64,000 nt of DNA. It comes from Cupriavidus sp. WKF15 (lineage in GTDB: Bacteria; Pseudomonadota; Gammaproteobacteria; Burkholderiales; Burkholderiaceae). The translations under genes were made by a program, and so were the position numbers. Below, one piece after another: positions 22,036 to 41,383 of this stretch (positions within the stretch are counted from its first letter, which is position 1; each line of letters begins with the position of its first letter). The DNA lies in assembly GCF_029278605.1 (NCBI RefSeq), contig NZ_CP119573.1, positions 1,364,001-1,428,000 of the forward strand. Direction: 5' to 3'. The notes under the pieces were generated by a model. The model made no database searches and had not been told where the DNA came from. It saw only the letters and a list, made by a program, of their open reading frames with translations.

Positions 22036-22090
22036 TTGGCACACCTGGAGGTATTTCGGAAAAAAGATCAGCGGATCGTGCTAATTGGAG

Positions 22091-22102: not shown

Positions 22103-22177
22103 GTCAGTTTGGCACATATCAAAGGCGATGGATACCTAGAATTTTCGCACAAGCAATCAGAAGCACGGAGGCAAAGC

Positions 22178-25100
22178 ATGAACCAGCGCGCAAACGAGAA
22201 CCACTTTCTTACCGATGAAAGCTACCGACTGGAGGATCGCTATCTGCGCGCTTCCGGGCGGGTGTTTCTCACGGGGACACAGGCGCTGGTGCGTATCCTG
22301 CTCGAACAGGCCCGAGCCGACCGCGTCGCCGGGTTGCGCACCGGTGGTCTGGTGTCTGGCTATCGTGGATCACCGCTTGGCGGGCTGGATCAAGAGCTGT
22401 GGCGACAGCGCAAGATGCTCGCCGAGCACGATATTCGCTTCGAACCCGGATTGAACGAGGATCTGGGGGCAACAATGCTGTGGGGAGCACAGCAGATTGA
22501 TGCCTTTCCAGGGAAGCGGGTCGAAGGGGTGTTCTCGATGTGGTACGGCAAGGGGCCAGGCGTTGATCGAACCGGTGACGTGTTCCGCAATGCCAATATC
22601 CTCGGCACGTCGCGCCACGGTGGCGTACTTGCGGTCGCGGGGGATGATCACGCGGCGCAGTCTTCGATGTTCCCGCACCAGACGGATCACGTGTTCGAGG
22701 GGGCGATGATGCCCATCCTGTTCCCGTCCTCCGTGGAGGAGTACATCGAGTTCGGCCTGTTTGGCTACGCACTCTCGCGCTTTTCCGGATTGTGGATCGC
22801 GTTCAAGGCAATTACCGAAACGGTGGAGAGTGGCAGGTCGATGACGCTATCTGGCGCAGGCTTGCATGGTGGCTTTGCTGTTCCCACGGATATCCAGATT
22901 CCCGAACGAGGTTTCGGTCTCGATATCAACATACGATGGCCGCAGCAGCGCGCCGAACTGGAGCGGCGCCTGATCGAGGAACGGCTGCCCGCAGCGCTTG
23001 CCTTTGCCCGTGCCAATCCGATCGATCGCGCGGTGGTACGGCCGGCAAACGCCAGAGTCGGGATCATCACAGTGGGCAAGGCTCATCTCGATGTGATGGC
23101 GGCGCTGCGGCGCCTTGATCTGGATACGGCCGCGCTGGAATCCATAGGTATCGGTGTCTATAAGGTCGGCATGTCCTGGCCGTTGGAGGGGCAAGGGGTG
23201 GAGCGCTTTTGCGCGGGCATGCGAGCGCTCATCGTGGTGGAAGAAAAGCGCAGTATGGTCGAGCAACAGATCCAGGCGTTGCTGTACAACCACCGGGCGG
23301 AAGTCCGTCCCGCGGTGTACGGCAAGCACGGGCCTGACGGTGAAACGTGGTTGCCTGCAACGATGGAGTTTTCTCCCGAGCAGGTAGCAGGTGTCCTTCG
23401 CTGGTTCTTCGACGCTCAGGGCGTTGTTGTCGCAGAGGCGCGCGGGACGGACCGTGCCAGCGCCGAAGCGGGTGCCCGTTCACGGGTGATCCCAATCCAG
23501 GCGGCCGAGCCGGTCCTGTCGCGCAAGCCGTTCTTCTGCTCCGGCTGCCCGCATAACAGCTCGACGCGCCTGCCAGACGGTTCGTATGCTGCGGCCGGCA
23601 TCGGATGCCACATCATGGCGCTGGGGCAGCGTGAGCGAACCGCAACCTTCTGTCAGATGGGTGGCGAGGGCGTGCAGTGGGTCGGTCTTTCGAGCTTCTC
23701 CACCATGCCACATCTGTTCGTCAACCTGGGCGACGGGACCTACCAGCATTCGGGCAGCCTGGCAATTCGGCAGGCCGTGGCGGCGGGGACCGCCGTGACC
23801 TACAAGATCCTCTTCAATGATGCGGTCGCAATGACCGGCGGCCAGCCGACCGAAGGGGGCCTGACGGTATCGAAGGTCGCCGCGCAGCTCATGGCCGAAG
23901 GGGTGAGAGAAATCGTGGTGGTCTCGGAGGAACCCGCGCGGTATCACTCGACGGGCGAAATGCCCGCCAGTGTGGCTGTGGTGGAGCGCAGCGAACTTGA
24001 TACCGTTCAGAAGCGCCTGCGCGAGTACCGCGGCGTTTCCGCCATCATCTATGACCAGACGTGTGCGGCCGAGAAGCGTCGCCGGCGCAAGCGCGGTTCG
24101 CTGGCGACGCCCAAACGGCACGTCGCTATCCATCCTGCCGTGTGCGAGGGCTGTGGAGACTGCTCGGCGCGCTCCGGTTGTATTGCCGTCGAGCCGCTGG
24201 AGACGGAGCTTGGCCGCAAGCGTGCTGTCAACCAGTCAGCGTGCAACAAGGACATGACCTGCGTGCAAGGCTACTGCCCAAGCTTCGTGACCATCGAGGG
24301 GGAGCGGCAAAGCGTAGTGCAATCAGGCACGCTGCAGCGTCTGGAAGCCGAGTGGCAGCTTACGTTGCCACCACCCGCCACGACTTCGCCCGAGTTACTG
24401 CAGCATTGTGGGGTACTTGTGGCAGGGATCGGCGGGACCGGGATTGTCACCGTTGGCGCAATCCTCGCCATGGCGGCTCATCTGGAAGGTCGTGGCGCCT
24501 CGACGCTCGATTTCACGGGCCTGGCCCAGAAGAATGGGGCGGTTGTCAGCCATATACAGCTGGCCCGGTCGCCTGACCACATTGCCACGGCACGCATCGA
24601 GTCGAAGAGCGCCAATCTTTTGCTTGGCTGCGATGCTGTCGTGGCGGCCTCGCCGGATGTGCTGGCAAGGCTTCATCCAGGCTCGGCGCATGCTGTGGTG
24701 GAAACCGCAATGACACCGACCGCGGATTTTGTCGGCAATGGCGATATGCAGATTTCCCTGCTGGCGCATCGGCATGCAATCGAACGTGTGCTTGGTGAGG
24801 GCAGGGCGGAATTCCATGACTGGAGCGCCGCGGCGCAAACGATATTCGGTGATACTTTTGCGGCTAACCTGATGTTGGTGGGCCATGCCTTTCAACGCGG
24901 TTGGCTCCCGGTTTCGGAGATCGCTATCCAGCGTGCCATTGAACTCAATGGCGCTGCTGTCGAGACCAACCGGCGGGCGTTCCTGTGGGGCCGGATTCTG
25001 GCCCACGACCAGACGGCGTTGCAGAAGGCGGGGCAAGCTGCCGCTGCGGCAAGCGAGCCATTCACCATCGGCGGATTCGTCAGCGCACGCGCGCAAGACC

Positions 25101-25708
25101 TTGGTGCCTACCAGAATGCCGCCTATGGGCGGCGGTATGCCGTCCTCGTGGACCGTGTCGCCCGTGCGGAAGGTCATATCGCGGGTACGCCAGGGGCGTT
25201 GACGGAAGCCGTCGCACGTAGCTATTTCAAGGTCCTCGCCTACAAGGATGAGTACGAAGTAGCACGTCTTCACACGGACCCTGTGACGTCGCGAGCCCTG
25301 CTGCAAGGTTTTGCACCCGGAGCGCAGCGTGTCTTTCATATGGCTCCCCCGATCCTGGCGCGAGCCCGCGGTGCCGATGGAATGCGTCGCAAGATTGCCT
25401 TGAAGGGCTGGTTCATCGTGCCGCTGATGCATATGCTGCGGCACGGCAAGGTGCTGCGTGGAACGGTGCTCGATCCTTTTGGCCTGCAGGCCGACCGTCA
25501 GCTGGAGCGTAGGCTGATTATCGAGTTCGAGCGCGATGTCGATGCGGTTCTCGAGCGATTGTCACTGAAGACCGTGGATGACGCTGTCGCGCTGGTCCGG
25601 CTATACGAGAAGGTCCGGGGATTTGGGCACGTCAAGATCCGTCATTTCGAAGAGGCGAGGCCGGAGTTCGAACGCCTTCGAGAGAAGATCGGGCGCAGTG
25701 ACGGATGA
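22178..25708 (+). CDS. Indolepyruvate-ferredoxin-oxidoreductase-family enzyme (fused 2-oxoacid oxidoreductase)
   Basis: 1176 residues, the fused alpha-gamma architecture of proteobacterial aryl/branched 2-oxoacid oxidoreductases. In order: pyrimidine-binding domain (GYRGSPLGGLDQELW near 60), TPP domain with PFFCSGCPHNSSTRLP and IGCHIMALGQRE (about 450-500), a cysteine-rich segment for Fe-S clusters (CEGCGDCSARSGC, then CNKDMTCVQGYC, about 655-705), and the gamma domain GIGGTGIVTVGAIL (about 750). Such enzymes oxidise indolepyruvate, phenylpyruvate or branched 2-oxoacids to acyl-CoA without ATP. The dehydrogenase 60 bases downstream would supply the 2-oxoacid. GGAGG precedes the start at 22178. 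Confidence 0.9.
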   Translation: MNQRANENHFLTDESYRLEDRYLRASGRVFLTGTQALVRILLEQARADRVAGLRTGGLVSGYRGSPLGGLDQELWRQRKMLAEHDIRFEPGLNEDLGATMLWGAQQIDAFPGKRVEGVFSMWYGKGPGVDRTGDVFRNANILGTSRHGGVLAVAGDDHAAQSSMFPHQTDHVFEGAMMPILFPSSVEEYIEFGLFGYALSRFSGLWIAFKAITETVESGRSMTLSGAGLHGGFAVPTDIQIPERGFGLDINIRWPQQRAELERRLIEERLPAALAFARANPIDRAVVRPANARVGIITVGKAHLDVMAALRRLDLDTAALESIGIGVYKVGMSWPLEGQGVERFCAGMRALIVVEEKRSMVEQQIQALLYNHRAEVRPAVYGKHGPDGETWLPATMEFSPEQVAGVLRWFFDAQGVVVAEARGTDRASAEAGARSRVIPIQAAEPVLSRKPFFCSGCPHNSSTRLPDGSYAAAGIGCHIMALGQRERTATFCQMGGEGVQWVGLSSFSTMPHLFVNLGDGTYQHSGSLAIRQAVAAGTAVTYKILFNDAVAMTGGQPTEGGLTVSKVAAQLMAEGVREIVVVSEEPARYHSTGEMPASVAVVERSELDTVQKRLREYRGVSAIIYDQTCAAEKRRRRKRGSLATPKRHVAIHPAVCEGCGDCSARSGCIAVEPLETELGRKRAVNQSACNKDMTCVQGYCPSFVTIEGERQSVVQSGTLQRLEAEWQLTLPPPATTSPELLQHCGVLVAGIGGTGIVTVGAILAMAAHLEGRGASTLDFTGLAQKNGAVVSHIQLARSPDHIATARIESKSANLLLGCDAVVAASPDVLARLHPGSAHAVVETAMTPTADFVGNGDMQISLLAHRHAIERVLGEGRAEFHDWSAAAQTIFGDTFAANLMLVGHAFQRGWLPVSEIAIQRAIELNGAAVETNRRAFLWGRILAHDQTALQKAGQAAAAASEPFTIGGFVSARAQDLGAYQNAAYGRRYAVLVDRVARAEGHIAGTPGALTEAVARSYFKVLAYKDEYEVARLHTDPVTSRALLQGFAPGAQRVFHMAPPILARARGADGMRRKIALKGWFIVPLMHMLRHGKVLRGTVLDPFGLQADRQLERRLIIEFERDVDAVLERLSLKTVDDAVALVRLYEKVRGFGHVKIRHFEEARPEFERLREKIGRSDG

Positions 25709-25768
25709 CGCAATCATGCGTGCCGGCTTCGGTCGGCACCATTTCTATGGCACTTACCACTTTTCCCA

Positions 25769-26854
25769 ATGAACGCACACGAAGTTTCAGGCGCGGATCA
25801 TCATTCCGTGAGCCTTTTTTGCGTGGCCGGTACCACGCCCCACGAGCGCATCACGCTGGTTACGGATGAAAAGACCGGACTACGGGCCATCATTGCCATC
25901 CATAGCACAGCGCGCGGTCCGGCCTTCGGAGGATGCCGGTACTGGAACTATGGGTCGGACCTCGCCGCCATGGAAGACGCCTTGCGCCTGTCGCGGGGAA
26001 TGAGCCTGAAGAATGCAATGGCGGATCTTCCGTTTGGCGGAGGCAAGGCCGTTATCTTGCGCGGAGATGGGCAGCATGAGCGCAAGGCCATGTACCAGGC
26101 CTTCGGCCGGGCGGTGCAAGCCCTGGCCGGCAGCTATATCACTGGGGAAGATGTCGGCACATCGGTGTCGGATATGCTTTCGGTGCGCGAAGTCACGCCT
26201 TATGCGGCGGGTATTCCGCGCGCAAACGGCTTTGGTGGCAATCCCTCTCCAAAGACTGCCCTGGGGGTATTTGCCGCCATTGAGCGTGGCGCATTGCATG
26301 TATTCGGCGCTGGGCATCTGAAGGGCCTTCGCGTCGCGGTGCAGGGTCTTGGCGCAGTAGGCTGGGCGCTGGCCGAGCGCCTTCACCGCTCGGGCTGCAA
26401 GCTGGTGGTGGCCGATATTGACGCTACCCGCACCGCCGCGGCAAATCGCGCGTTCGACGCCACCGTCGTTGCGGTGGATGATATCGCCGCGCAGGATGTC
26501 GACATCCTGGCACCTTGCGCGCTGGGCGCGACGCTGGATCGGCACAGCATTCCTGCCCTGCGTGCGCGCCTGGTAGCAGGGGCGGCCAACAACCAGTTAG
26601 CCACAGATGCCGATGGCGACGCATTGCATGAGCGTGGCATCGCCTATCTGCCCGACTATCTCGTGAACGCGGGCGGAATTATCAGTTGCGTTCGTGAATA
26701 CGAGGGCGGCTTTGCTGAATCGGATGTGGATGCCGAGGTGCTGCGCATCGCCGACCGGGTAGAGTCGTTGTTCATGCGCGCCCGCCAGACGGGCGAGCCC
26801 CTGTCGCGCGCAGCCGACCAGTGGGCGCTGGAGAAACTCGCTGGCGTATCCTGA
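25769..26854 (+). CDS. Glu/Leu/Phe/Val dehydrogenase, leucine-dehydrogenase type
   Basis: 361 residues. The catalytic lysine motif LPFGGGKAVI, the N-terminal STARGPAFGGCRYWNYG and the Rossmann segment VAVQGLGAVGWALAERL (about 192-208) identify a leucine/phenylalanine-type NAD dehydrogenase. It deaminates an amino acid to the 2-oxoacid, which the preceding oxidoreductase can turn into an acyl-CoA. It ends just before the promoter of the GntR gene. It has no strong ribosome site, so the start is by family length. Which amino acid is used cannot be read from the sequence. Confidence 0.88.
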   Translation: MNAHEVSGADHHSVSLFCVAGTTPHERITLVTDEKTGLRAIIAIHSTARGPAFGGCRYWNYGSDLAAMEDALRLSRGMSLKNAMADLPFGGGKAVILRGDGQHERKAMYQAFGRAVQALAGSYITGEDVGTSVSDMLSVREVTPYAAGIPRANGFGGNPSPKTALGVFAAIERGALHVFGAGHLKGLRVAVQGLGAVGWALAERLHRSGCKLVVADIDATRTAAANRAFDATVVAVDDIAAQDVDILAPCALGATLDRHSIPALRARLVAGAANNQLATDADGDALHERGIAYLPDYLVNAGGIISCVREYEGGFAESDVDAEVLRIADRVESLFMRARQTGEPLSRAADQWALEKLAGVS

Positions 26855-26898: not shown

Positions 26899-26915
26899 TA
26901 TAATTGTGATCACAA
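26899..26915 (+). promoter_or_regulatory. Promoter -10 and perfect GntR operator of the regulator gene
   Basis: TATAAT at 26899-26904 runs into TTGTGATCACAA (26904-26915), a perfect 12-bp palindrome. A TTCGAC/TCGACA -35 lies at about 26874-26880. This is the best-conserved of the five copies and implies autoregulation. Confidence 0.75.
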
Positions 26916-26993: not shown

Positions 26994-27794
26994 ATGGACG
27001 GGCTGGGCGAACAGGGGCGCCAAGACAAGGGCGGGTTCGACGACGACAGTCCGGCGGTTTCCCGGCTGACCAATGTTGCGCTCCGTGAACGCGCCTATAC
27101 CGAACTGGCCAACGCGTTGCGAGCAGGGCGTTTTTCGCCGGGGAGCTCGGTGACCATTCGCGGTCTTGCCGCCTTGCTCGGCACCAGCACAATGCCGGTC
27201 CGCGAAGCCGTAAGCCGCCTGGTAACCGAGGGCGCGCTGGAACTGCTGCCGAATCGGACGCTGCGTGTCCCGAATGTGTCGGTGGAGCGCCTGGACGATC
27301 TCATCGACACGCGTGCCACGCTCGAGGGGCGCGCTGCCTGGCTGGCCGCCGAGCGCATGACGCAGGCAGACTTCTCCCTGATCAAGGCTGCGGCGGAAGA
27401 CTACAGTCACGCTGTGGACGCTGGCGACGTGCCGGCCGCGGTCGCGGCAAACGAGCAATTGCACTTTACGATCTACCGGGCCTCGCGTTCGGAGTTGCTG
27501 GTCTCGCTCATTGAAATGCTCTGGCTGCAGAGCGGGCCCTACATTGCGGCGGTCATGAAGCAGATGCAGTCGACCCGCGAGATCCTGCATGACCGGGGCA
27601 TCATGCACCACTTCAATATTCTGGCCGCGCTTGCAAAGCGCGATCCGCAAGCCTCCAGCGACGCGGTGCAGTCCGATATCCTCGATGCGGCCAAGTGGTA
27701 CAAGACGCAGATCTTCGCTGCGGACGGTACGCCGATTCTGGTGCCTGCCGCGGAACGAAAGCGCCGGGGCAGGGCCCCGGCGACAACGGAGTAA
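26994..27794 (+). CDS. GntR/FCD regulator, likely repressor of the whole 14-35 kb regulon
   Basis: 266 residues: winged HTH at about 20-85 (LRERAYTELANALRAGRF; STMPVREAVSRLVTEGALEL), FCD domain at about 95-230. The first 20 residues are a polar extension. AGGAG precedes the ATG. The gene carries one perfect TTGTGATCACAA in its own promoter, and the same site occurs in the promoters of the alpha/beta hydrolase, Liv operon, HyuAB operon and SDR operon, all within 18 kb. Placement over -35/-10 elements indicates repression, presumably relieved by a pathway carboxylate. The assignment of the site to this protein is inference from position. Confidence 0.9.
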   Translation: MDGLGEQGRQDKGGFDDDSPAVSRLTNVALRERAYTELANALRAGRFSPGSSVTIRGLAALLGTSTMPVREAVSRLVTEGALELLPNRTLRVPNVSVERLDDLIDTRATLEGRAAWLAAERMTQADFSLIKAAAEDYSHAVDAGDVPAAVAANEQLHFTIYRASRSELLVSLIEMLWLQSGPYIAAVMKQMQSTREILHDRGIMHHFNILAALAKRDPQASSDAVQSDILDAAKWYKTQIFAADGTPILVPAAERKRRGRAPATTE

Positions 27795-27851: not shown

Positions 27852-28373
27852 CTAAAAGGCCTGTTCCGCTTCCTGCAGGTAGGCTCGGCCAAGCTTCACG
27901 TATTCATCGGCTGCCCAAGCCAGCTCGGCGACTTCCTCATCGGTCAACGTTCGCACGATACGGCCTGGCGTACCCATGACAAGGCTTCGCGGCGGGATGA
28001 CTTTTCCGGGAGGAATCAGCGCACCGGCCCCGATCAGGGACTGTTCGCCGATCCGCGCCCCGTCTAGCACCGTGGCCCCGATTCCGATCAAGGACCCATC
28101 CGCGATGATGCATCCGTGCAGCCGAGCCTGATGGCCGACGCTTACGCCATCGCCGATGATGACGGGGTGCCCTGGGTCGGCATGCACGACAACGCCGTCC
28201 TGGAGGTTGGTCCGGGCGCCGATGGTAATCGGTTCCACGTCCGCACGCAGTACCGCGGAGAACCATACGGAACTGTTCTCTCCCAGTGTCACGGCGCCCA
28301 CGACAGTCGCATTGTCGGCAAGGAAGCAGGACTTGCCGATCGACGGTATCGATTTGCCAAAACGTACCCGCAT
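27852..28373 (-). CDS. Gamma carbonic anhydrase-family protein
   Basis: 173 residues of left-handed beta-helix hexapeptide repeats. The zinc-site histidines of the family are seen at VVVHADPGHP and SVGHQARLHGC. It may be a true carbonic anhydrase, or a PaaY/CaiE-like relative acting as thioesterase or accessory protein. I take ATG at 28373, whose A is the last base of the hyuB stop codon (TGATG), so translation is coupled to hyuB. That tight coupling suggests a role in the HyuAB reaction, for example hydrating CO2 if HyuAB is a carboxylase. Confidence 0.88.
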   Translation of the reverse strand: MRVRFGKSIPSIGKSCFLADNATVVGAVTLGENSSVWFSAVLRADVEPITIGARTNLQDGVVVHADPGHPVIIGDGVSVGHQARLHGCIIADGSLIGIGATVLDGARIGEQSLIGAGALIPPGKVIPPRSLVMGTPGRIVRTLTDEEVAELAWAADEYVKLGRAYLQEAEQAF

Positions 28374-30169
28374 CACGCCGCCTTCCGTGTCGAGGCTTCG
28401 TTACGCAATCGCGCGGTCGCCGTGCTATCCATTGCGCCGTCGTAACTGACTACCACGGCATAGACGTCACGCGCACGCTCGATGCTTAAGTAACCCTCAG
28501 TCACGTCCTTTCGAACCAGCTCGGGGTCTCGGGTATGCGGGTCGCCGTAGCCTCCGCCCCCGCAGGAATAGGACAGGATGGTCTCGCCGTCGCGCAGTGT
28601 GACGACGCCGCCGGCCGGCAGGGCTTCGAGGCTGCCGGATACCAGGCGTCGCTGCTGCGCGGAGTTGGCACCGGCGAGACCGCCACGGACGCCCTTGGGG
28701 CCGTTAACAGAGCCATCGCTGACGTAGCCAATGTCCATTTCGCAACCGCGCGGGCCGAACTCGACAAACATGCTTCGCGCACCGTTGTAGCGTCCGGCTC
28801 CCTCGCTGTCGGGCACAAAGCTGCGAGAGCGAACAAACAGAGGGTGGCGCATTTCATCGAGTTCGACACTGTCCTGGAAGCACAGGCCCGCGTTACCAAC
28901 GTGTCCGATCGTCTGCCATGCGTCGGCCGTCGGTCCCGCGGCGCCGCCGGTGAAGCCAAGGAACAGCTGGTTGATGAAACGGTGACCCGTAGTGGGGTCG
29001 ACGCCCGAAATCACACCGATTGCCGGTGGGATCACGGCACCGCATTCCGCCAGTCCGGCGCCATCCGCCATCTCTGCCACGGCGGTCTGCACGGCATTGG
29101 CGACGCGGTCGGCCATATTCGTGGTGGCGACGGAACACGAGGTGGGATGCAGCGGGATGCCAACCACGCAGCCTTCGCGCAAGCGAATATCGATACGGCG
29201 GAAGGACCCTGAGTTCTTGGGCACGGTGTGCTCGATACTGTTGAAGACGCCGACCATCGCGGCCGTGCGTGCGCACGCTTCGCTGAGATTGAGACCACAC
29301 GGCAGGCAATCCGGGTTGTCACGCAGATCCACCGTCACCTTGCCATTGACGGCATCGACTTCGATCTCGGCGCGGATTGTTACGCCTTCCTCCGGCATGC
29401 CGGGGAATAGCGCGTCATGGGTGCTGGTGCCCGTCCCGCGCCCGGGAGTCAGGGACTGAATGGCGCTGATCATGCGCTGCTCGGAGTAATCCAGGTAATC
29501 GACTGCATACTGCTCCAGTCGGTCCCATCCGAGTTCTTCACCCAGCGCCAGCAGTTCGCGCTCTCCAATGCGGGCGGCACCAACCATCGCGAGATAGTCA
29601 CCCCACCATTGTTCGGGCACGCGAATGCGCATTTTGCACATGCGCACAATATCGTCGATATTGCTGTAGTCCTGCTGCACCTTGACCGCGGGGAAGATCA
29701 GGGCTCCCTCATGGTAGATGTCGCGGGCCCCGCCCATATAAGTGGTTGGCTCCGAGTTGCCGCAGTCGGCCTGGTGCGCCTTGGCCACCACCGTGAAGCG
29801 GTGAACGCCCTGGTCATCGATCACCGGCACCAGGATTGTGTGGTCGGCCGGGTGAGAGCAGCCGTGATAGGGCGAATTGTGGAGGAACGCATCGCCACGG
29901 CGCAGTTCAGGGTGGAACTGCTTCATGGTCGCGCTCATCATGTCCGGACCGCTCAGCACATGGATGGGAAGGCTTTCGGCCGCTGCCAGCAGCTGGCAAT
30001 CCGCGGTGACGATGCAGCAGGAGAAGTCCCGTGCGATATTGAGCACGCCCGACCGACCACTACGAAGCAGTGTATTGGCCATCTTGCGGGCGACGCCTTC
30101 AAGCCGGTTGGTAATCAATGCGAGCTGGACGCCATCCGTGGCGGGACGCTCGATCTGGTCTCGTTGCAT
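28373..30169 (-). CDS. hyuB: Hydantoinase B/oxoprolinase-family subunit
   Basis: 598 residues covering the whole HyuB domain, with HNSPYHGCSHPADH near residue 100 and the glycine-rich C-terminal GGGGYGDPHTRDPELV typical of the family. Together with HyuA it forms an ATP-dependent enzyme; known members hydrolyse hydantoins, 5-oxoproline or caprolactam, or carboxylate acetone and acetophenone. It starts 13 bases after hyuA behind AGGAG and overlaps the gamma carbonic anhydrase gene by one base. The reaction here is unknown; the neighbours favour a ring-opening or a carboxylation step in catabolism. Confidence 0.9.
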   Translation of the reverse strand: MQRDQIERPATDGVQLALITNRLEGVARKMANTLLRSGRSGVLNIARDFSCCIVTADCQLLAAAESLPIHVLSGPDMMSATMKQFHPELRRGDAFLHNSPYHGCSHPADHTILVPVIDDQGVHRFTVVAKAHQADCGNSEPTTYMGGARDIYHEGALIFPAVKVQQDYSNIDDIVRMCKMRIRVPEQWWGDYLAMVGAARIGERELLALGEELGWDRLEQYAVDYLDYSEQRMISAIQSLTPGRGTGTSTHDALFPGMPEEGVTIRAEIEVDAVNGKVTVDLRDNPDCLPCGLNLSEACARTAAMVGVFNSIEHTVPKNSGSFRRIDIRLREGCVVGIPLHPTSCSVATTNMADRVANAVQTAVAEMADGAGLAECGAVIPPAIGVISGVDPTTGHRFINQLFLGFTGGAAGPTADAWQTIGHVGNAGLCFQDSVELDEMRHPLFVRSRSFVPDSEGAGRYNGARSMFVEFGPRGCEMDIGYVSDGSVNGPKGVRGGLAGANSAQQRRLVSGSLEALPAGGVVTLRDGETILSYSCGGGGYGDPHTRDPELVRKDVTEGYLSIERARDVYAVVVSYDGAMDSTATARLRNEASTRKAA

Positions 30170-30182
30170 GAGTGGCTCCTGA

Positions 30183-32255
30183 TTAATCGCGGCCGGGAAG
30201 AATAGAAAGACTGCCGCTTGCCCGGCGCGTGGCGCTCGCCCCAGGGTTCAGCACGACAGTGGTGAATGACGACTCGATGATTGCTGGTCCCTGGACGGTT
30301 TCCGAGGAATCGAGTGCTTCGAAGCGGACCACCGCAGTGTCGACATAGCCCGCGCCCTCGAAATAGGCTTTGCGAACGGGGTTTGCGATCGGGCGCGCGA
30401 TCGAGTTGGCAAGCGTGCCGCCCTCCTGCGTGCGGATGCGGCAGGCAACCGTCGCTCGCCAGCCCACGATCTCGATGGGCGAGTCTGCATCGCGGATCGC
30501 AAAGACTTCTTCGTGGGCGCGGTGAAAGCCTTCGACCAGCGCGGCAATATCCGCTTCTGTGTGGAGTCCATCTGGAGGCAGCTGCACCTCAAGTTCCCAT
30601 ACCTGCTCCGGATAGCGTGCCTCTGCCCAGAGTGTTACGGTCTGAGCCAGGGAGCCCTTGCCTGGCCCATCGATGAATTCCTGGCAACGACCCGTGAGGT
30701 CGTTCAGGACTTCCCGCACTCCCGTGAAGTCAAAGGCGTCGCTTCGCGTGAAGAAGGTGGCGTGGTAATGAGAGGTCAGGTCGGACATCATGGCGCCGGC
30801 AGCGCTCATGGTGGCACCGACTTGCGGAATGACCAGGCGCGGCGAACTCAGGCGACGTGCAATCAGTACGGAATTCAGTCCGGCCGCGCCACCGCCGCCG
30901 ATGAGGACGGCCTCGCTTGGGTCGATGCCCTGGTTGATGGTGATGTCGCAGATGGCCTGAACCATGTTCTCGGTGGCAATGCTGATGATCGAGGCCGCGG
31001 CTGCTTCCACGGACATAGCCAGCGGAGTGGCGATATGGGCCTGAATTGCCTCACGCGCAGCGACGGCGTCCAGTTTCATGGTGCCGCCGAGGAAGAAGTC
31101 GGGGTCGATATAGCCCAACGCGAGCGAGGCGTCCGTGACAGTCGGGAACGTTCCGCCTCGGCCATAGCAAACGGGCCCTGGCACCGCGCCGGCACTGCTA
31201 GGGCCAACGTGGAGCATGCCGCCACTGTCTACCCAGGCGATGGAGCCACCCCCTGCACCCACGCTTTTCACGTCCACCGAAGGGAAGCCGGTCATGACGC
31301 CGCGGTAGGGCGCGCCGATCCAGGTTTCCTGGGACCACGGCACGCGGCCGCGGCGCACCAGGCTGACATCGTAGGTCGTGCCGCCGGTGTCGGCCACGAT
31401 TGCCGTTCCTGTGTCTTCGTCGGCCCGCGCGAAGTAGCGGCCGGAAACGGGGGCCATCGAAGGGCCGGAATTGATGAGATGAATGGGGGCGTCCGCGACA
31501 TGGTCTGCATCCATGACGCCGCCCTGCGAGGTGACCACCACGACGCGTCCCGGGAAGCCCGCTGACTTGAGCCGATCCACCAGCGTATGCATGTAGGCCC
31601 GCATCATCGGCTTCAGGGAAGCATCGATGCAGCTGGACGAGGTCCGACGGAATTCTCGCGGAATCGGGTTGAGGCGGTGCGACAGCGTAAACGGCACGCC
31701 GGGAAGGTGGGTTTGAATTAACTCCGCGATCCGCAGCTCGTGTGCAGGATTCACGATCGACCACAGAAGGCATACCGCAACGGCCTCGATCCCCGCGCGT
31801 CGCATCTCATCCAGGGACCGGATGAGGGCGGCCTCGTCCAGTGGCTCCAGCTCGGTTCCGTCAGCCAGGATGCGGCCAGGGACTTCCCAGGTGAGTGCCC
31901 TTGGCACAAAGGGATCGGGGTACGCCACCGTGAAGTTGAACGGCTCCAGGCGCCCTCCCTCCCGCAAGGTAAGGATATCGCGGTGGCCAGACGGCACGAT
32001 CAAGGCCGTACGCGCCGTGTTGCCAGTGATGATGGCGTTGATCGCGTGAGTGGTCCCGTAGATGAACATCTCGCCGAGCGACAACATGGTGTCGCGCGCA
32101 AGCCCAAGGCCGTCGGCGGCGACCTGCAGGGCATCCAGGACTCCGCTGATTGGATCCGACGGAGTCGTGGGCGACTTGAACATATGCAAGTTACCGACCT
32201 CATCTTCAACGATGAGGTCGGTAAAGGTACCGCCTGTGTCTACTGCAAAACGCAT
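30183..32255 (-). CDS. hyuA: Hydantoinase A/oxoprolinase-family ATP-binding subunit
   Basis: 690 residues. The actin-like phosphate motif VDTGGTFTDLIV opens the protein and DTGGTTYDVSLVRRG (about 275) and the GGGGAAGLNSVLIAR segment (about 450) complete the ATPase. The start at 32255 has AGGAG nine bases upstream; a much longer open frame to its right has no homology and crosses the promoter. The promoter carries a GntR operator. HyuA phosphorylates a carbonyl or amide oxygen while HyuB completes the reaction. A third, small subunit as in acetone carboxylase is not encoded here. Confidence 0.9.
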   Translation of the reverse strand: MRFAVDTGGTFTDLIVEDEVGNLHMFKSPTTPSDPISGVLDALQVAADGLGLARDTMLSLGEMFIYGTTHAINAIITGNTARTALIVPSGHRDILTLREGGRLEPFNFTVAYPDPFVPRALTWEVPGRILADGTELEPLDEAALIRSLDEMRRAGIEAVAVCLLWSIVNPAHELRIAELIQTHLPGVPFTLSHRLNPIPREFRRTSSSCIDASLKPMMRAYMHTLVDRLKSAGFPGRVVVVTSQGGVMDADHVADAPIHLINSGPSMAPVSGRYFARADEDTGTAIVADTGGTTYDVSLVRRGRVPWSQETWIGAPYRGVMTGFPSVDVKSVGAGGGSIAWVDSGGMLHVGPSSAGAVPGPVCYGRGGTFPTVTDASLALGYIDPDFFLGGTMKLDAVAAREAIQAHIATPLAMSVEAAAASIISIATENMVQAICDITINQGIDPSEAVLIGGGGAAGLNSVLIARRLSSPRLVIPQVGATMSAAGAMMSDLTSHYHATFFTRSDAFDFTGVREVLNDLTGRCQEFIDGPGKGSLAQTVTLWAEARYPEQVWELEVQLPPDGLHTEADIAALVEGFHRAHEEVFAIRDADSPIEIVGWRATVACRIRTQEGGTLANSIARPIANPVRKAYFEGAGYVDTAVVRFEALDSSETVQGPAIIESSFTTVVLNPGASATRRASGSLSILPGRD

Positions 32256-32315
32256 GAACTGTCTCCTGTGAGCCAACCCGGTGGGGCGTCGCATCATGAC
32301 GCCGTCAGCGAGGGC

Positions 32316-32344
32316 AGTATATTTACCGATGTTTGTGATCACAA
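32316..32344 (-). promoter_or_regulatory. Promoter of the HyuAB operon with GntR operator at -35
   Basis: Minus strand TTGTGA (32344-32339), 17-base spacer, TATACT (32321-32316). The perfect palindrome TTGTGATCACAA covers 32333-32344 and so includes the -35 hexamer. Confidence 0.75.
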
Positions 32345-32435
32345 GAATATTGAGCGCAAAATAGGATAAATACGGGTAAACCACTACTTTACGGCTGGTT
32401 ACGCCGAGTAATTTCGGTGCCAATGAAAAATATGT

Positions 32436-32464
32436 TTGATTTGTGATCACAAAAGAGCTACCTT
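32436..32464 (+). promoter_or_regulatory. Promoter of the SDR/BKACE operon with GntR operator in the spacer
   Basis: TTGATT at 32436-32441, 17-base spacer, TACCTT at 32459-32464. TTGTGATCACAA lies at 32441-32452, within the spacer. Confidence 0.65.
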
Positions 32465-32526
32465 TGCCCCTGATGCAGAACCCCGCCCGAAAGGCGGTCG
32501 ACGAGTTCAGAACAGAGGAGCAGGAA

Positions 32527-33294
32527 ATGCACGACACAACGAAAGTCGCCATCGTCACCGGCGGTTCACAAGGGATTGGCGAAGCCGCCGCAACGAAGCT
32601 CGCGGCCGAGGGCTTCCGCGTCGCCGTAGTTGCCAGCGCGGACCGGGCGAAGGCCGGCAGGGTCGCGCAAGCCATCCATGCCAAAGGGGGCGATGCGGCG
32701 GGTTTTGCATGCGACGTCCGTAATCCCGACGCGGCCCGCCGGCTTATCGCGGAGGTTCACGACGCGTTCGGCCGTATCGACGTCCTGGTGAATGCTGCGG
32801 GAATCTTCAAGCCGACACCGGCTGGCAGTTCCGACGCCACGCATGTCAACCAGATGATTGATACGAACCTGAAGGGCACATGGAACACCATTGACGCGGT
32901 GGTGCCGGTGCTGAGGGCCAATGGTGGAGGGCGAATCGTCAATGTGGCGTCGGTCGCCGGGCTGACCGGCTTTGGCTCCTATGCGATCTATTGCGCGACG
33001 AAGGCCGGCATCATCCTCGCGACGCGTGCCCTGGCCTGCGAACTGGGCCGTGAAAACATCAACGTCAATTGCGTGGCGCCCGGCAATACGGCCACCGCCA
33101 TGAACGACGACATTCGCAATGAGGCTGCCATGCAGGGGCTGCGTGATTTCATGGCGGCACGTACGCCCAGCACGCGAACGTTCTCCGAGCCCGAGGACAT
33201 CGCAGGCGCCATCGCGTTCCTAGCCTCCGACGCCGCGCGCGCCATGCATGGCAGTTGCCTGTTGATGGACGAGGGCATATCCGCCGGGCTGTGA
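32527..33294 (+). CDS. SDR-family oxidoreductase (first of two)
   Basis: 255 residues, classical short-chain dehydrogenase: cofactor motif VTGGSQGIGEAA, NAG segment LVNAAGIF, catalytic Ser in NVASVAGLTG and Tyr-x-x-x-Lys in IYCATKAG. It most likely oxidises a secondary alcohol (or reduces a ketone) with NAD(P). The start at 32527 follows GGAGCAGGAA; the upstream frame overlaps the promoter. First gene of a three-gene operon with a second SDR and a beta-keto acid cleavage enzyme, which suggests that the ketone product feeds that enzyme directly or after modification. Confidence 0.88.
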   Translation: MHDTTKVAIVTGGSQGIGEAAATKLAAEGFRVAVVASADRAKAGRVAQAIHAKGGDAAGFACDVRNPDAARRLIAEVHDAFGRIDVLVNAAGIFKPTPAGSSDATHVNQMIDTNLKGTWNTIDAVVPVLRANGGGRIVNVASVAGLTGFGSYAIYCATKAGIILATRALACELGRENINVNCVAPGNTATAMNDDIRNEAAMQGLRDFMAARTPSTRTFSEPEDIAGAIAFLASDAARAMHGSCLLMDEGISAGL

Positions 33295-33340
33295 AAGCGT
33301 GACCGGGTGTTCGAATCAACGATAAGAAGGCATTTCCAAG

Positions 33341-34102
33341 ATGAAAGAAAGAGTCCTGGTGACGGGTGGCGCCGATAGTGTCGGCCGCGTTATTGCGGAG
33401 CAGTTCCGCGCTGGCGGCGCGCTGGTGCATATCTGCGACGTACGTGCCGACGCGCTGGCCGAGACCCTGCGCGCCAACCCCGGCATGACCGGAACGGTCG
33501 CCAATGTGGGTAAGCCCGATGACGTTGGCAGAGTCGTGCGGGAGGCCGAGCGCCAATTTGGCGACATCTCGGTCCTCGTGAACAACGTCGGCATCGCGGG
33601 CCCTCGAGCGGCGATCGAAGATATCCCCGACGAGGCATGGCGAGAGACACTCGACGTCAATGTTGGCGCGATGTTCCAGTTCATGAAGCGTGTCGTCCCA
33701 GCCATGAAGCGGCACCGTCATGGCGCAATCATCAATTTCTCGACCGGGTCCACGCGCACCCGCCTGCCAATGCGCACGCCCTATGTGGTGTCAAAAGCCG
33801 CAGTCGAGTCGCTCACCTTGAATGCAGCCCGCGAGCTGGGTCCGTTCAATGTTCGTTGCAACGCGATCCTGCCGGGCATGATCGATAACGACAGGATGCG
33901 GCGAATCGTCGCCAACATCGCGCAGGAATCGGGGCGCGCCGCCGAAGAGGTGGAATCGGACTACCTGAAGTACATATCGTTGCGCAGCAAGGTTCAGCCA
34001 GAAGACCTTGCGCAGACCGTTCTCTTTCTCGCGTCGGATGCCGCGGCGAAGATTACCGGCGAGCTACTGGCCGTCAGCGGAAACGTCGAGTGGGAGATCT
34101 GA
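33341..34102 (+). CDS. SDR-family oxidoreductase (second of two)
   Basis: 253 residues, SDR fold with VTGGADSVGRVI (a variant glycine motif), LVNNVGIAGP, catalytic Ser in NFSTGSTRTR and Tyr-Lys in YVVSKAAVE. It is only distantly similar to the upstream SDR, so the two probably act on different alcohols or stereoisomers. The start overlaps nothing; the next gene begins three bases after its stop. The C-terminal region EEVESDYLKYISLRSKVQPE is typical of catabolic 3-hydroxy acid or polyol dehydrogenases of this superfamily. Confidence 0.87.
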   Translation: MKERVLVTGGADSVGRVIAEQFRAGGALVHICDVRADALAETLRANPGMTGTVANVGKPDDVGRVVREAERQFGDISVLVNNVGIAGPRAAIEDIPDEAWRETLDVNVGAMFQFMKRVVPAMKRHRHGAIINFSTGSTRTRLPMRTPYVVSKAAVESLTLNAARELGPFNVRCNAILPGMIDNDRMRRIVANIAQESGRAAEEVESDYLKYISLRSKVQPEDLAQTVLFLASDAAAKITGELLAVSGNVEWEI

Positions 34103-34104
34103 CA

Positions 34105-34998
34105 ATGTCACGCAAAGTTATCCTTACCTGTGCCGTAACAGGAAACGCTCCGTTTAATCCCAAGCATCCTTCGATGCCGATTACGCCGGCACAGATTGCT
34201 GATGCCTGCGTGGAGGCGGCGAAGGCCGGTGCATCTGTCGCGCACATTCACGTGCGCGACCCCAAGACGGGCGGAGGCAGCCGCGATCCATTGCTATTCA
34301 AGGAGGTGGTCGACCGGGTACGCTCTTCGGGTACGGACATCGTGCTGAATCTCACTTGTGGCTTGGGTGCGTTCCTGCTGCCGGATCCCGAAGACGAATC
34401 GAAGGCGCTACCGGAAAGTGACGTCATCCCCGTGGCTGAGCGGGTCAGGCATCTCGAAGATTGTTTGCCGGAAATTGCCTCACTCGATATTACGACTGGA
34501 AACCAGGTGGAAGGCAAACTCGAGTTTGTCTACCTGAATACCACTCGAACCCTGCGTGCGATGGCTCGGCGTTTCCAGGAGCTCGGCGTCAAGCCGGAGT
34601 TGGAGGTATTCAGTCCCGGAGACATTCTGTTTGGCAAATCGCTAATCGAAGAGGGCCTGATTGACGGAGTGCCCCTCTTCCAGATGGTACTGGGCGTCTT
34701 GTGGGGGGCGCCCGCGAGCACGGAGACAATGCTTTATCAACGCAACCTCATTCCACCGAATGCCCAATGGGCCGCGTTCGGTATTGGACGAGACCAAATG
34801 CCCATGATGGCGCAGGCAGCCTTGCTTGGCGGCAATGTGCGTGTTGGCTTGGAGGACAATCTGTACCTGAGCCGTGGCGTCTTTGCCACCAACGGCCAGC
34901 TTGTCGAGCGTGCTCGCAACGTGATTGAGCACCTGGGCATGTCCGTGGCCACGCCGGCCGAAGCCCGTGACATCATGGGCTTGTCTCGACCCGCCTAG
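34105..34998 (+). CDS. Beta-keto acid cleavage enzyme (BKACE, DUF849)
   Basis: 297 residues of the BKACE barrel. Zinc ligands His47 and His49 are seen in AHIHVRDP, and the later metal residue lies in VGLEDNLYL. The family catalyses beta-keto acid + acetyl-CoA giving acetoacetate + an acyl-CoA, first known from 3-keto-5-aminohexanoate in lysine fermentation. Start at 34105 follows GGAGA three bases after the SDR stop, so it is cotranscribed with both SDRs. It implies that the pathway passes through a beta-keto acid. Confidence 0.9.
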   Translation: MSRKVILTCAVTGNAPFNPKHPSMPITPAQIADACVEAAKAGASVAHIHVRDPKTGGGSRDPLLFKEVVDRVRSSGTDIVLNLTCGLGAFLLPDPEDESKALPESDVIPVAERVRHLEDCLPEIASLDITTGNQVEGKLEFVYLNTTRTLRAMARRFQELGVKPELEVFSPGDILFGKSLIEEGLIDGVPLFQMVLGVLWGAPASTETMLYQRNLIPPNAQWAAFGIGRDQMPMMAQAALLGGNVRVGLEDNLYLSRGVFATNGQLVERARNVIEHLGMSVATPAEARDIMGLSRPA

Positions 34999-35089: not shown

Positions 35090-35881
35090 TCATCCTCGCG
35101 CATTCAGTAGACGCAGAATCTCTTCATGCACGCGAGCGTCGCCACATGCGACCACTGCACCGCCATTCTGAGGGTCGTCGCCCGTCCAACTCGTCATGAC
35201 GCCGCCGGCACCCTCGATGATTGGGATCAGGGCCTGCACGTCATAAGGCTGTAGTCCCGCCTCGACCACGGCGTCGATCTGGCCTGCGGCGACCATGCAA
35301 TATCCGTAACAATCCCCGCCGTATCGCTGCATTCGCGCGGAACGTGCCACACGCTGGAAAGCTTCCCATTGTTCACCCGCTTCAAACATGTCGGGAGTCG
35401 TGCAGAGCAGCTTGGCGTCTGACAGGGCTTTGCAAGGCTGAACCCTTAATAGCTTGCCATTGAGCCAGGCGTGGTTGCCGTCACCGGAGAAGCGCTCGCG
35501 CGTGAACGGCTGATCCATGACCCCGAGTACCGGGTGCTGGCCATCGTTGAGCGCAATCAGCGTTCCCCAAAGTGGCAGTCCTGTGATAAACGCACGTGTC
35601 CCGTCAATGGGATCCAGTACCCACGTGAACGGCTCGGTCCCGACAATTCGCTGCTCCTCTTCGCCGAGAATGCCGTGGGTGGGATAGGTACTCCGGATCA
35701 GCTCGCGCATGGCCCGCTCGGCTTCCCGGTCGGCCACGGTAACGGGATCAAAGCGTGTGGCGCCTTTGTCCACCACATCGATCACTGCACGAAAATAGGC
35801 GAGTGTGACAGCGCTTGCTGCATCGGCCATGCGACCGGCAAAGGTGAGAAATTCGGCTTGCTGATCTGCGTGCAGTGGCAT
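35090..35881 (-). CDS. Inositol-monophosphatase-family phosphatase (HisN-like)
   Basis: 263 residues with the three metal-site motifs of the family: the EEEQ segment (GILGEEEQRI, about 75), DPIDGTRAF (about 94) and the late motif with WTGDDP. Length and the motif WVLDPIDGTRAFITGLP fit the histidinol-phosphatase (HisN) branch as well as generic sugar/inositol phosphatases. It is convergent with the BKACE operon and shows no GntR operator, so it may be unrelated to the pathway. Confidence 0.85.
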   Translation of the reverse strand: MPLHADQQAEFLTFAGRMADAASAVTLAYFRAVIDVVDKGATRFDPVTVADREAERAMRELIRSTYPTHGILGEEEQRIVGTEPFTWVLDPIDGTRAFITGLPLWGTLIALNDGQHPVLGVMDQPFTRERFSGDGNHAWLNGKLLRVQPCKALSDAKLLCTTPDMFEAGEQWEAFQRVARSARMQRYGGDCYGYCMVAAGQIDAVVEAGLQPYDVQALIPIIEGAGGVMTSWTGDDPQNGGAVVACGDARVHEEILRLLNARG

Positions 35882-37106: not shown

Positions 37107-37184
37107 CCATCGAGCCAACCCTGTCTTCGCGTTGAGCACAACCGACCCGCCTCCCGCCGCGAAGCGCCCCCACAGGAGCTGTTG

Positions 37185-38171
37185 ATGAAACGAGACCGCC
37201 GACTTTTCCTTGCCGCCACTGCCATGGCGGCGCTGGCGCTTGCCGCGGGCAGCGCGGCCGCTGCCGCTGCCTATCCGACCAAGACCGTGACCATGGTGGT
37301 CGCCTATCCGCCGGGCGGCGACACGGATGCCATGGCGCGCCTGTATGCCGACAAGCTGTCGGCGCGCCTCAAGCAGCCCGTGATCGTGGAGAACCGCCCC
37401 GGCGCCGCGGGCGTGGTCGGTACCGCCTTCGTCAGCCGCGCGCAGCCGGATGGCTACACGCTGCTCTATACGCCGAACCCGTTCACGCTCGCGCCGATGG
37501 TGCTCAAGCTAGCGCCGGCAGCCAGCTATGACCCGCTGCACAGCTTCACGCCCGTGATTCAGACCGCGGTGCAGGCGGTGCTGCTGGTGGCCAACCCGGC
37601 GGCCGGCGTCAAGACGGTCCCGGAGATGATCGCCGCGGCGAAGGCGGGCAAGAGCTTCACCTATGCCAGCCCGGGCGCCGGCTCGCCGATGCACATTGCC
37701 GGCGAGATGCTGAACCGCGCCGCGGGCGTGAAGATCCAGCACGTGCCATACAAGGGCGTGGCGCCGGCCGTCAACGACGTGGTGGCCGGTCACGTGAACT
37801 TTGCCTACGTCACGCTGGGCCCGGTCGCGCAGTACATCAACACGGGCAAACTGATCGCCCTGGCCATCACCGATGCGAAGCGCTCCGCGCTGCTGCCGAA
37901 CGTGCCGACACTGGCCGAACTTGGCTACAAGGACGTGGTGGTCGGCGCATGGCACGGCGTGATGGCGCCCAAGGGCACGCCCGCCGAGGTGGTGAAGGTC
38001 CTCAACGAGCAGCTCAACGAGGTGATCAGGCTGCCGGACGTCGCCGAGAAGATGGCCACGTTCGGCGCTTTGCCGATCGGCGGCACGCCCGCGGCGCTCG
38101 AAAAGGTCAACGCTTCCGACTACGAGCGCCTTGGCAAGGTCATCCGCGACATGGGCATTTCCGCGGAATGA
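37185..38171 (+). CDS. Bug/TctC-family periplasmic binding protein
   Basis: 328 residues: signal peptide (about 1-28, Ala-rich, with an RDRR start that may be Tat-like) and a complete TctC domain (KTVTMVVAYPPGGDTDAMAR; IQHVPYKGVAPAVNDVVAGH). AGGAG precedes the ATG at 37185. It is the first gene downstream of the MarR operators and lies 46 bases before the hydroxylase large subunit, so it is probably the binding protein for the hydroxylase substrate. Confidence 0.9.
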   Translation: MKRDRRLFLAATAMAALALAAGSAAAAAAYPTKTVTMVVAYPPGGDTDAMARLYADKLSARLKQPVIVENRPGAAGVVGTAFVSRAQPDGYTLLYTPNPFTLAPMVLKLAPAASYDPLHSFTPVIQTAVQAVLLVANPAAGVKTVPEMIAAAKAGKSFTYASPGAGSPMHIAGEMLNRAAGVKIQHVPYKGVAPAVNDVVAGHVNFAYVTLGPVAQYINTGKLIALAITDAKRSALLPNVPTLAELGYKDVVVGAWHGVMAPKGTPAEVVKVLNEQLNEVIRLPDVAEKMATFGALPIGGTPAALEKVNASDYERLGKVIRDMGISAE

Positions 38172-38217
38172 CGCAGCACCCAGCAGATCGATGCAATACC
38201 AGACGCAGGAGGCGGGC

Positions 38218-41374: not shown

Positions 41375-41383
41375 GGAGTTGCC

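What the first reader, a model, noticed from the sequence alone, without database searches (positions are those of the whole stretch)
27852..34998. Possible ketone-carboxylation route: SDRs, HyuAB, gamma carbonic anhydrase and BKACE
HyuA/HyuB relatives include acetone and acetophenone carboxylases, which make beta-keto acids. Here HyuB is translationally coupled (TGATG) to a gamma carbonic anhydrase, and the co-regulated divergent operon encodes two alcohol dehydrogenase-like SDRs and a beta-keto acid cleavage enzyme. A coherent, untested scheme is alcohol to ketone (SDR), ketone + bicarbonate + ATP to beta-keto acid (HyuAB with carbonic anhydrase), then beta-keto acid + acetyl-CoA to acyl-CoA + acetoacetate (BKACE). 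I know of no described pathway with this combination. Alternatives are hydantoin, oxoproline or lactam opening.
Basis: inference. Interest (0 to 1): 0.8.

Follow-up and report, generated by a model that had tools for sequence, protein, structure and literature searches.

The report
Conserved HyuAB, SDR and beta-keto-acid operon
Two back-to-back bacterial operons look like one regulated breakdown pathway, found in many soil and sea bacteria, that probably passes through a beta-keto acid; how the ATP-using HyuAB enzyme feeds it, by fixing bicarbonate onto a ketone or by opening a ring, is not settled.

Summary
HyuA, HyuB and a gamma-carbonic-anhydrase-like protein face SDR1, SDR2 and a BKACE-family protein. 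A palindrome, TTGTGATCACAA, lies 75-79 bp before hyuA, sdr1 and the nearby gntR; its exact 13-base form occurs nowhere else in the 7.38-Mb genome, so this looks like one regulon. The partnership is conserved: of 47 clade loci with full flanks, 24 carry a BKACE, 36 an SDR1-type and 34 an SDR2-type protein, against 0 of 30 hand-picked other HyuAB loci. Two BKACE subfamilies replace one another at least 5 times on the HyuB tree, which points to a beta-keto acid intermediate. The carboxylase reading is only partly supported: HyuA falls on the caprolactamase side of a tree, away from acetone and acetophenone carboxylases; the gamma subunit is missing at the locus and in 13 of 17 carrier genomes; the published fingerprint is absent. 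The carbonic anhydrase is not diagnostic, since caprolactamase also needs bicarbonate and in one relative this protein sits in a slot that a thioesterase holds elsewhere. I rate two-subunit ketone carboxylation 0.40 and ATP-dependent ring opening 0.38. No paper in my searches describes the module.

The parts
26904..26915 (+). palindrome TTGTGATCACAA, 79 bp upstream of gntR; probable GntR operator
26994..27794 (+). GntR/FadR-family regulator (GntR + FCD domains), probable regulator of the module
27852..28373 (-). gamma-carbonic-anhydrase-like hexapeptide protein, ATG overlaps HyuB stop (TGATG); carbonic anhydrase or PaaY-like thioesterase
   Evidence: NCBIfam gamma-CA model 203.5 bits (cut-off 250), PaaY 111.5 (cut-off 319.6)
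28373..30169 (-). HyuB, 598 aa; metal ligands D48, H106, D109, H132 by alignment to caprolactamase CapB
30183..32255 (-). HyuA, 690 aa; ATP motifs DTGGTFTD, DTGGTTYD, GAVPGP
32333..32344 (+). palindrome TTGTGATCACAA, 78 bp upstream of hyuA ATG
32441..32452 (+). palindrome TTGTGATCACAA, 75 bp upstream of sdr1 ATG
32527..33294 (+). SDR1, short-chain dehydrogenase; SDR1-type in 36 of 47 full clade loci. A longer frame starts at GTG 32443, inside the palindrome
33341..34102 (+). SDR2, short-chain dehydrogenase; SDR2-type in all 24 BKACE-bearing full loci
34105..34998 (+). BKACE-family protein, nearly identical to PDB 3C6C; zinc ligands kept, Phe169 at the catalytic-Tyr position, long loop after strand 3

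Best explanation
This is a GntR-controlled catabolic module. Supported by sequence and comparison: the six enzymes look like one regulon, and HyuAB works in a pathway whose key intermediate is probably a beta-keto acid, processed by BKACE with acetyl-CoA. Inferred, and my single most likely mechanism: SDR1 (and perhaps SDR2) oxidises a secondary alcohol to a ketone; HyuA uses ATP to activate bicarbonate and the enol of the ketone; HyuB joins them at its metal site to give a beta-keto acid; BKACE converts it with acetyl-CoA to an acyl-CoA and acetoacetate. It would be a ketone carboxylase made of two subunits only, without the gamma subunit of acetone and acetophenone carboxylase. The gamma-CA would supply bicarbonate, or else hydrolyse the acyl-CoA.
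For: Regulon: three operator-like sites, unique as exact copies in the genome. The open frames of BKACE and HyuA lie on one strand with under 100 bp between them, or overlap, in 12 of 29 BKACE loci. Two BKACE subfamilies alternate at least 5 times on the HyuB tree of 28 of the 29 loci plus the window; sister loci L052/L056 and L004/L058/L067 keep similar gene sets but differ in BKACE type. Two of the 11 short-type BKACEs were scanned (L004 with Tyr, L051 with Phe); both score above the cut-off of the model '3,5-dioxohexanoate:acetyl-CoA acetone transferase'. P. denitrificans BKACE15, which takes that substrate, also takes beta-ketopentanoate and beta-ketohexanoate (passage of PMC11961710): acids without an amine, as carboxylation of simple ketones would give; that the two are one family I infer from the name. 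Only gntR and the hyuA and sdr1 operons lie behind exact operators. L006 has HyuAB, an SDR, an acyl-CoA ligase and a thiolase, the logic of the acetophenone route (PMC5214803). Metal ligands and ATP motifs are intact. Caprolactamase shows that a two-subunit member uses bicarbonate with ATP, and PMC5214803 judges direct participation of the gamma subunit in carboxylation unlikely.
Against: HyuA falls on the caprolactamase side of the tree, away from Apc and Acx; identity is 35% to CapA, 31% to Apc, 25% to Acx, and HyuB is 26% to CapB. Gene order and lengths are those of the hydrolase branch by the criteria of PMC5214803; no gamma subunit in 13 of 17 carrier genomes; fingerprint R/KERiDsxG replaced by PGRILADG. 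The CapB tyrosine proposed as acid/base for lactam cleavage is kept in 113 of 114 clade HyuB rows, while acetophenone carboxylase has Met there (my reading of the alignment). SDR2-type is in 24 of 24 BKACE-bearing full loci but 10 of 23 others, as if SDR2, not HyuAB, made the beta-keto acid; carboxylation leaves SDR2 without a clear role. Aminotransferases occur in some clade loci (L005, L006, L057, L076, L085). 23 of 47 full loci have no BKACE.
Confidence: 0.4

Rival explanations
1. HyuAB is an ATP- and bicarbonate-dependent hydrolase. It opens a lactam (or similar ring amide) bearing a hydroxyl or oxo group at the beta position, releasing a beta-hydroxy or beta-keto acid; SDR2 oxidises the former to the beta-keto acid and BKACE cleaves it, as dehydrogenase plus BKACE do for carnitine and deoxyribonate.
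For: Place in the HyuA tree. Nearest solved relatives are caprolactamase and N-methylhydantoinase. Two-subunit architecture, no gamma subunit, tyrosine kept in 113 of 114 rows. SDR2-type in 24 of 24 BKACE-bearing full loci. Precedents: deoxyribonate dehydrogenase plus BKACE (PMC6365646), carnitine dehydrogenase plus BKACE (PMC12482172). L057 has a class-III aminotransferase beside the module.
Against: No amine- or amide-handling gene behind the exact operators. Of the genes I labelled in the 29 BKACE loci, an aminotransferase appears in one (L057) and an amino acid dehydrogenase of the ScyB-like cluster in four (L009-L011, L051); many neighbours were not annotated. In the window that dehydrogenase (25769-26854) lies upstream of the gntR site. 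The two short-type BKACEs scanned match a model named for an acid without an amine.
Confidence: 0.38
2. The BKACE homologue does not cleave but transfers acetyl to the beta-keto acid, giving a 1,3-diketone after loss of CO2, as BsfD of flavophos biosynthesis does; the module would then be biosynthetic or detoxifying.
For: The window protein shares with BsfD the Phe at the catalytic-Tyr position and the long loop after strand 3 (PMC12871164).
Against: BsfD Arg91, which lies near the phosphonate, aligns with Phe in the window protein. Phe also occurs in two paralogues of this genome that score above the cut-off of the 3-oxoadipate:acetyl-CoA acetyltransferase model (position from an automatic alignment), and in L035 and L051 inside the short-loop group. 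Tyr-type and Phe-type proteins replace one another in clade loci, and a hotdog thioesterase-like gene is found in 7 of 29 BKACE loci, which suits an acyl-CoA product.
Confidence: 0.08
3. Two ordinary catabolic operons that share a regulator by chance of location, with no common pathway.
For: SDRs are common, and this genome has 15 BKACE matches in all.
Against: Shared operators that are unique as exact copies, association 24 of 47 against 0 of 30, repeated BKACE replacement, single-operon arrangements in other lineages.
Confidence: 0.04

Closest known systems
Caprolactamase CapAB (Pseudomonas jessenii, PDB 6YRA; PMC8453981)
   Same: two subunits of nearly the same length, same ATP motifs and four metal ligands, conserved tyrosine; same side of the HyuA tree, as sister group with weak support (84)
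   Different: 35% (HyuA) and 26% (HyuB) identity; the clade has His, Gly and Asn where CapB has Pro408 and Cys410-Cys411 (112, 114 and 111 of 114 rows); partners are SDRs and BKACE
Acetophenone carboxylase Apc and acetone carboxylase Acx (PDB 5L9W, 5M45; PMC5214803)
   Same: ATP-binding alpha subunit and metal-binding beta subunit; the Apc route also goes alcohol, ketone, beta-keto acid, acyl-CoA
   Different: no gamma (and no alpha' or epsilon) subunit, shorter subunits, no R/KERiDsxG fingerprint, separate branches of the HyuA tree; BKACE in place of CoA ligase plus thiolase. The genome has a separate acetone-carboxylase-type locus at C2:1069275-1074246
Dehydrogenase plus BKACE pathways for deoxyribonate and carnitine (PMC6365646, PMC12482172)
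   Same: a dehydrogenase makes the beta-keto acid that a BKACE cleaves with acetyl-CoA
   Different: the word hydantoinase does not occur in PMC6365646; not looked for in PMC12482172
BsfD and PDB 3C6C (PMC12871164)
   Same: the window BKACE matches 3C6C with few differences along its whole length and is 41% identical to the BsfD fragment, with the same Phe
   Different: no Arg91 equivalent; setting looks catabolic rather than phosphonate biosynthesis

Membership tests
ketone carboxylase (Acx/Apc branch) | gamma subunit (PF08882) encoded with alpha and beta | tested here: not met
   own genome has one match only, at C2:1069275, beside the second HyuAB pair and 322 kb from the module; 13 of 17 clade carrier genomes have none; in the 4 of 10 family genomes with matches none is near the module
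ketone carboxylase (Acx/Apc branch) | place in the tree with Acx or Apc | tested here: not met
   HyuA tree of 40 rows: Acx rows and Apc rows form their own groups; 99% SH-aLRT for the branch that holds clade, CapA and controls. Quick method, fragments for PDB rows
ketone carboxylase (Acx/Apc branch) | longer subunits (beta about 670-720 aa or more) | tested here: not met
   HyuB 598 aa, HyuA 690 aa against criteria in PMC5214803
ketone carboxylase (Acx/Apc branch) | R/KERiDsxG segment of Apc alpha | tested here: not met
   window PGRILADG; caprolactamase GGRIISDG; Apc RERIDSSG; Acx VERTDMMG, so Acx does not fit it well either
ketone carboxylase (Acx/Apc branch) | bicarbonate-dependent carboxylation of a ketone | not testable with these tools
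   needs enzyme assay
ATP-dependent lactamase/hydantoinase (Hyd branch) | two-gene hyuAB unit, HyuB about 570-600 aa | tested here: met
ATP-dependent lactamase/hydantoinase (Hyd branch) | ATP motifs and Asp-His-Asp-His metal site (shared with carboxylases) | tested here: met
ATP-dependent lactamase/hydantoinase (Hyd branch) | hydrolysis of an amide ring with ATP | not testable with these tools
   needs enzyme assay
caprolactamase CapAB proper | vicinal Cys410-Cys411 of CapB | tested here: not met
   Gly and Asn in the window; equivalog scores 541.6 and 252.2 against cut-offs of 1000
BKACE (PF05853) | zinc ligands His-x-His and Glu | tested here: met
   HIHVRD and RVGLEDN; PF05853 303 bits
BKACE (PF05853) | catalytic Tyr said to be in all BKACEs (PMC12871164) | tested here: not met
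   Phe169; but Phe occurs in other members too
gamma carbonic anhydrase | match to gamma-CA rather than PaaY model | tested here: inconclusive
   203.5 bits (cut-off 250) against PaaY 111.5; neither cut-off reached; three His of the zinc site seen by eye, positions recalled

The most novel reading that the evidence does not exclude
A widespread, undescribed ketone assimilation pathway in which a minimal two-subunit, gamma-less HyuAB carboxylase fixes bicarbonate onto a ketone and BKACE cleaves the beta-keto acid with acetyl-CoA, replacing the CoA ligase and thiolase of the acetophenone route.
Probability: 0.36. Interest if true: 0.8.

Novelty: new variant of a known kind. Interest (0 to 1): 0.62.

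Why it matters
The HyuA/HyuB family is large, poorly characterised and annotated by default as hydantoinase. A HyuB clade with its own active-site signature, tied to BKACE and SDRs across Alpha-, Beta- and a few Gammaproteobacteria, gives a concrete place to find out how this family switches between hydrolysis and carboxylation. If carboxylation is right, ketone carboxylation needs no gamma subunit. The repeated exchange of BKACE subfamilies also bears on the recent suggestion that a Tyr-to-Phe change sets BKACE chemistry.

Tried and rejected
Membership in acetone or acetophenone carboxylase was tested and not met (see Membership tests). The idea that IOR and the amino acid dehydrogenase (22109-26854) belong to the pathway was set aside: the only palindrome there lies downstream of them, before gntR, and an Lrp-type gene faces them; but they stay near the module in L009-L011 (both genes) and L013-L014 (IOR), and a dehydrogenase of the same cluster is near L051. 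Exclusion between gamma-CA and hotdog thioesterase (7 and 7 of 29 BKACE loci, 0 both) is suggestive only (about 0.11 by hand calculation, no call). The pocket comparison marks a distinct clade but does not tell hydrolase from carboxylase. No structure prediction was run.

Literature: the pair hydantoinase and '3-keto-5-aminohexanoate cleavage' had no paper; none of the 7 papers held 'beta-keto acid cleavage'; others (20 of 28 listed) showed no such pathway in titles and abstract starts. Seen of the papers: PMC5214803 opening text and sections 6-7; PMC8453981 abstract and sections 2.1, 2.7, 2.10; PMC12871164 passages and sections 7-8; PMC6365646, PMC11961710, PMC12482172 and PMC12133276 passages; PMC9618137 outline, abstract and opening text. 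Recalled, not from a call: Kce Glu14 as amine-binding residue (not used in the argument), gamma-CA zinc positions, that 3C6C is Reut_C6226 of JMP134.
Full report
What is there. The window lies in a 7.38-Mb, three-contig genome (contig C2); its HyuB is 94.8% identical to one on Cupriavidus pinatubonensis HN-2 plasmid p2, where the genes from BKACE to the Lrp-type regulator follow in the same order. On the minus strand: HyuA 30183-32255, HyuB 28373-30169, gamma-CA-like 27852-28373 (TGATG overlap). On the plus strand: SDR1 32527-33294, SDR2 33341-34102, BKACE 34105-34998. GntR/FCD regulator: 26994-27794.

Regulation. TTGTGATCACAA occurs exactly at 26904, 32333 and 32441, i.e. 79, 78 and 75 bp from the start codons of gntR, hyuA and sdr1. 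The exact 13-mer TTTGTGATCACAA has only these three places in the genome (four rows, one place read on both strands) and the reversed control none; near-matches were not sought genome-wide. The 12-mer also occurs in 15 of 183 fetched loci, among them L003, L009-L011, L013, L014, L023, L060 and L131-L136, mostly one copy between hyuA and sdr1, so the second intergenic copy is not general. A caveat: the SDR1 frame can also start at GTG 32443 (283 aa), as the HN-2 record has it by length; the third palindrome would then overlap that start. That GntR binds the sites is inferred.

Conservation. Many are short. Among the 47 with at least 7 kb on both sides of HyuB: HyuA 44, SDR1-type 36, SDR2-type 34, BKACE 24, gamma-CA 7; SDR2-type is in 24 of 24 with and 10 of 23 without BKACE, SDR1-type in 21 of 24 and 15 of 23. 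In 30 control loci (HyuA 34-38% identical, Burkholderiaceae, three stretches shorter than 20 kb) BKACE, SDR1-type and SDR2-type at the same thresholds were all 0 of 30, though three had some weaker SDR match; no gamma-CA or thioesterase was listed in any of them. The controls were picked by hand from the upper part of the list, leaving some out, and come from one family, so they are not a random sample. In 398 genomes of the family (two candidates scored per genome), 11 including this one hold a HyuA of 54% identity or more; the next matches are 40% or less. Of the 10 others, 7 have BKACE, SDR1, SDR2 and gamma-CA; the three at 54-59% identity have no BKACE; five of the ten repeat named loci. 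The module is accessory.

BKACE subfamilies. Eighteen of 29 loci have the window type (long loop, Phe); eleven have a short-loop type, nine with Tyr and two with Phe. On a HyuB tree of the window, 28 of the 29 loci and CapB, the type changes at least 5 times; several inner branches are weakly supported and L008 has a long branch. Similar gene sets in sister loci differ in BKACE type. I read this as repeated replacement of one protein by another that does the same step.

HyuAB. In a 123-row HyuB tree the clade (108 rows, some from one locus) has full local support (FastTree). In a 40-row HyuA tree (quick method) the 17 clade rows form one group (100); a weakly supported branch (84) joins it to CapA, two other rows and three controls; a branch with 99 separates these and the other controls from the Apc rows, and Acx rows, this genome's own second HyuA among them, lie further off. 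Metal ligands are present in 112 to 114 of 114 clade HyuB rows (two rows gapped at Asp41); the CapB tyrosine in 113 (one Met); His at CapB 408 in 112, Gly at 410 in 114, Asn at 411 in 111 (rows include repeats of a locus). Scores against solved structures fall from caprolactamase (HyuA 425, HyuB 184 bits) to N-methylhydantoinase (327, 113), acetophenone carboxylase (276, 92) and acetone carboxylase (180, 32). PF08882, the gamma subunit, is found in 4 of 17 carrier genomes reached through loci (L010 was not held; L060 and L085 have no BKACE in the stretch) and in 4 of 10 overlapping family genomes. In those four family genomes no match is near the module: in G709 it is about 500 kb away on the same contig, in the others on other contigs.

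Gamma-CA-like protein. It fits the gamma-CA model better than PaaY but reaches neither cut-off. The genome has a second copy of the family at 48% identity and a weak third match. Among L004-L088 it occurs only with BKACE (L009-L014, L062). In L062 the order is BKACE, gamma-CA, SDR2; in L040 and L054 it is BKACE, hotdog thioesterase-like gene, SDR2 (4HBT_2 shown for L040). So it may serve bicarbonate supply or acyl-CoA hydrolysis.

Other clade contexts. L008 pairs the module with 3-oxoacid CoA-transferase genes, which could recycle the acetoacetate made by BKACE. L006 has HyuAB with an acyl-CoA ligase and a thiolase. L005, L006, L076 and L085 have a kinase-like and a class-III aminotransferase gene. 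Marine alphaproteobacterial loci often have HyuA followed by two HyuB copies, a PF00144 esterase-like gene and SDRs, without BKACE in the stretch fetched.

Weighing. Architecture, tree and nearest relatives favour a hydrolase; pathway partners favour a beta-keto acid and a ketone. I commit, at 0.40, to two-subunit carboxylation, with ring opening at 0.38; this is close to a tie. The beta-keto acid step itself I hold at about 0.85. Probabilities are my judgement.

Verdict. A real, conserved module that the papers searched do not describe.

Noticed in passing
window 22109-26854: Indolepyruvate ferredoxin oxidoreductase-type gene (annotated so in L003) and a ScyB-like amino acid dehydrogenase, facing an Lrp/AsnC-type gene (21559-22044); near the module in related Burkholderiales.
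   Followed up: partly
window 37182-42602: Solute-binding-protein-like gene (37182) followed by reading frames that look like a molybdenum hydroxylase set (large subunit 38131, FAD subunit 40121, iron-sulfur subunit 41384) and an accessory protein (41850); judged by eye, not searched.
   Followed up: no
L172 7104-8456 (own genome C2:1141113-1141973): Another BKACE-family gene of this genome with the long loop, the Phe and an Arg aligned with BsfD Arg91, so a possible BsfD-like enzyme.
   Followed up: no
L012 5210-6113: BKACE frame in Cupriavidus necator UYPR2.512 is split into pieces (same in L137); intact copies exist in relatives.
   Followed up: no
L015, L016, L019, L027-L030, L033, L034, L036, L041, L042, L045: Tandem HyuB copies in marine alphaproteobacteria, the two copies forming separate tree branches.
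   Followed up: partly
L038, L039, L046, L047, L061: Clade HyuB directly after an SDR1-type gene, with no clade HyuA found in the fetched stretch.
   Followed up: no
window 35090-35881: HisN-type histidinol phosphatase-like gene, above the NCBIfam cut-off (316.8 against 275.15 bits).
   Followed up: no
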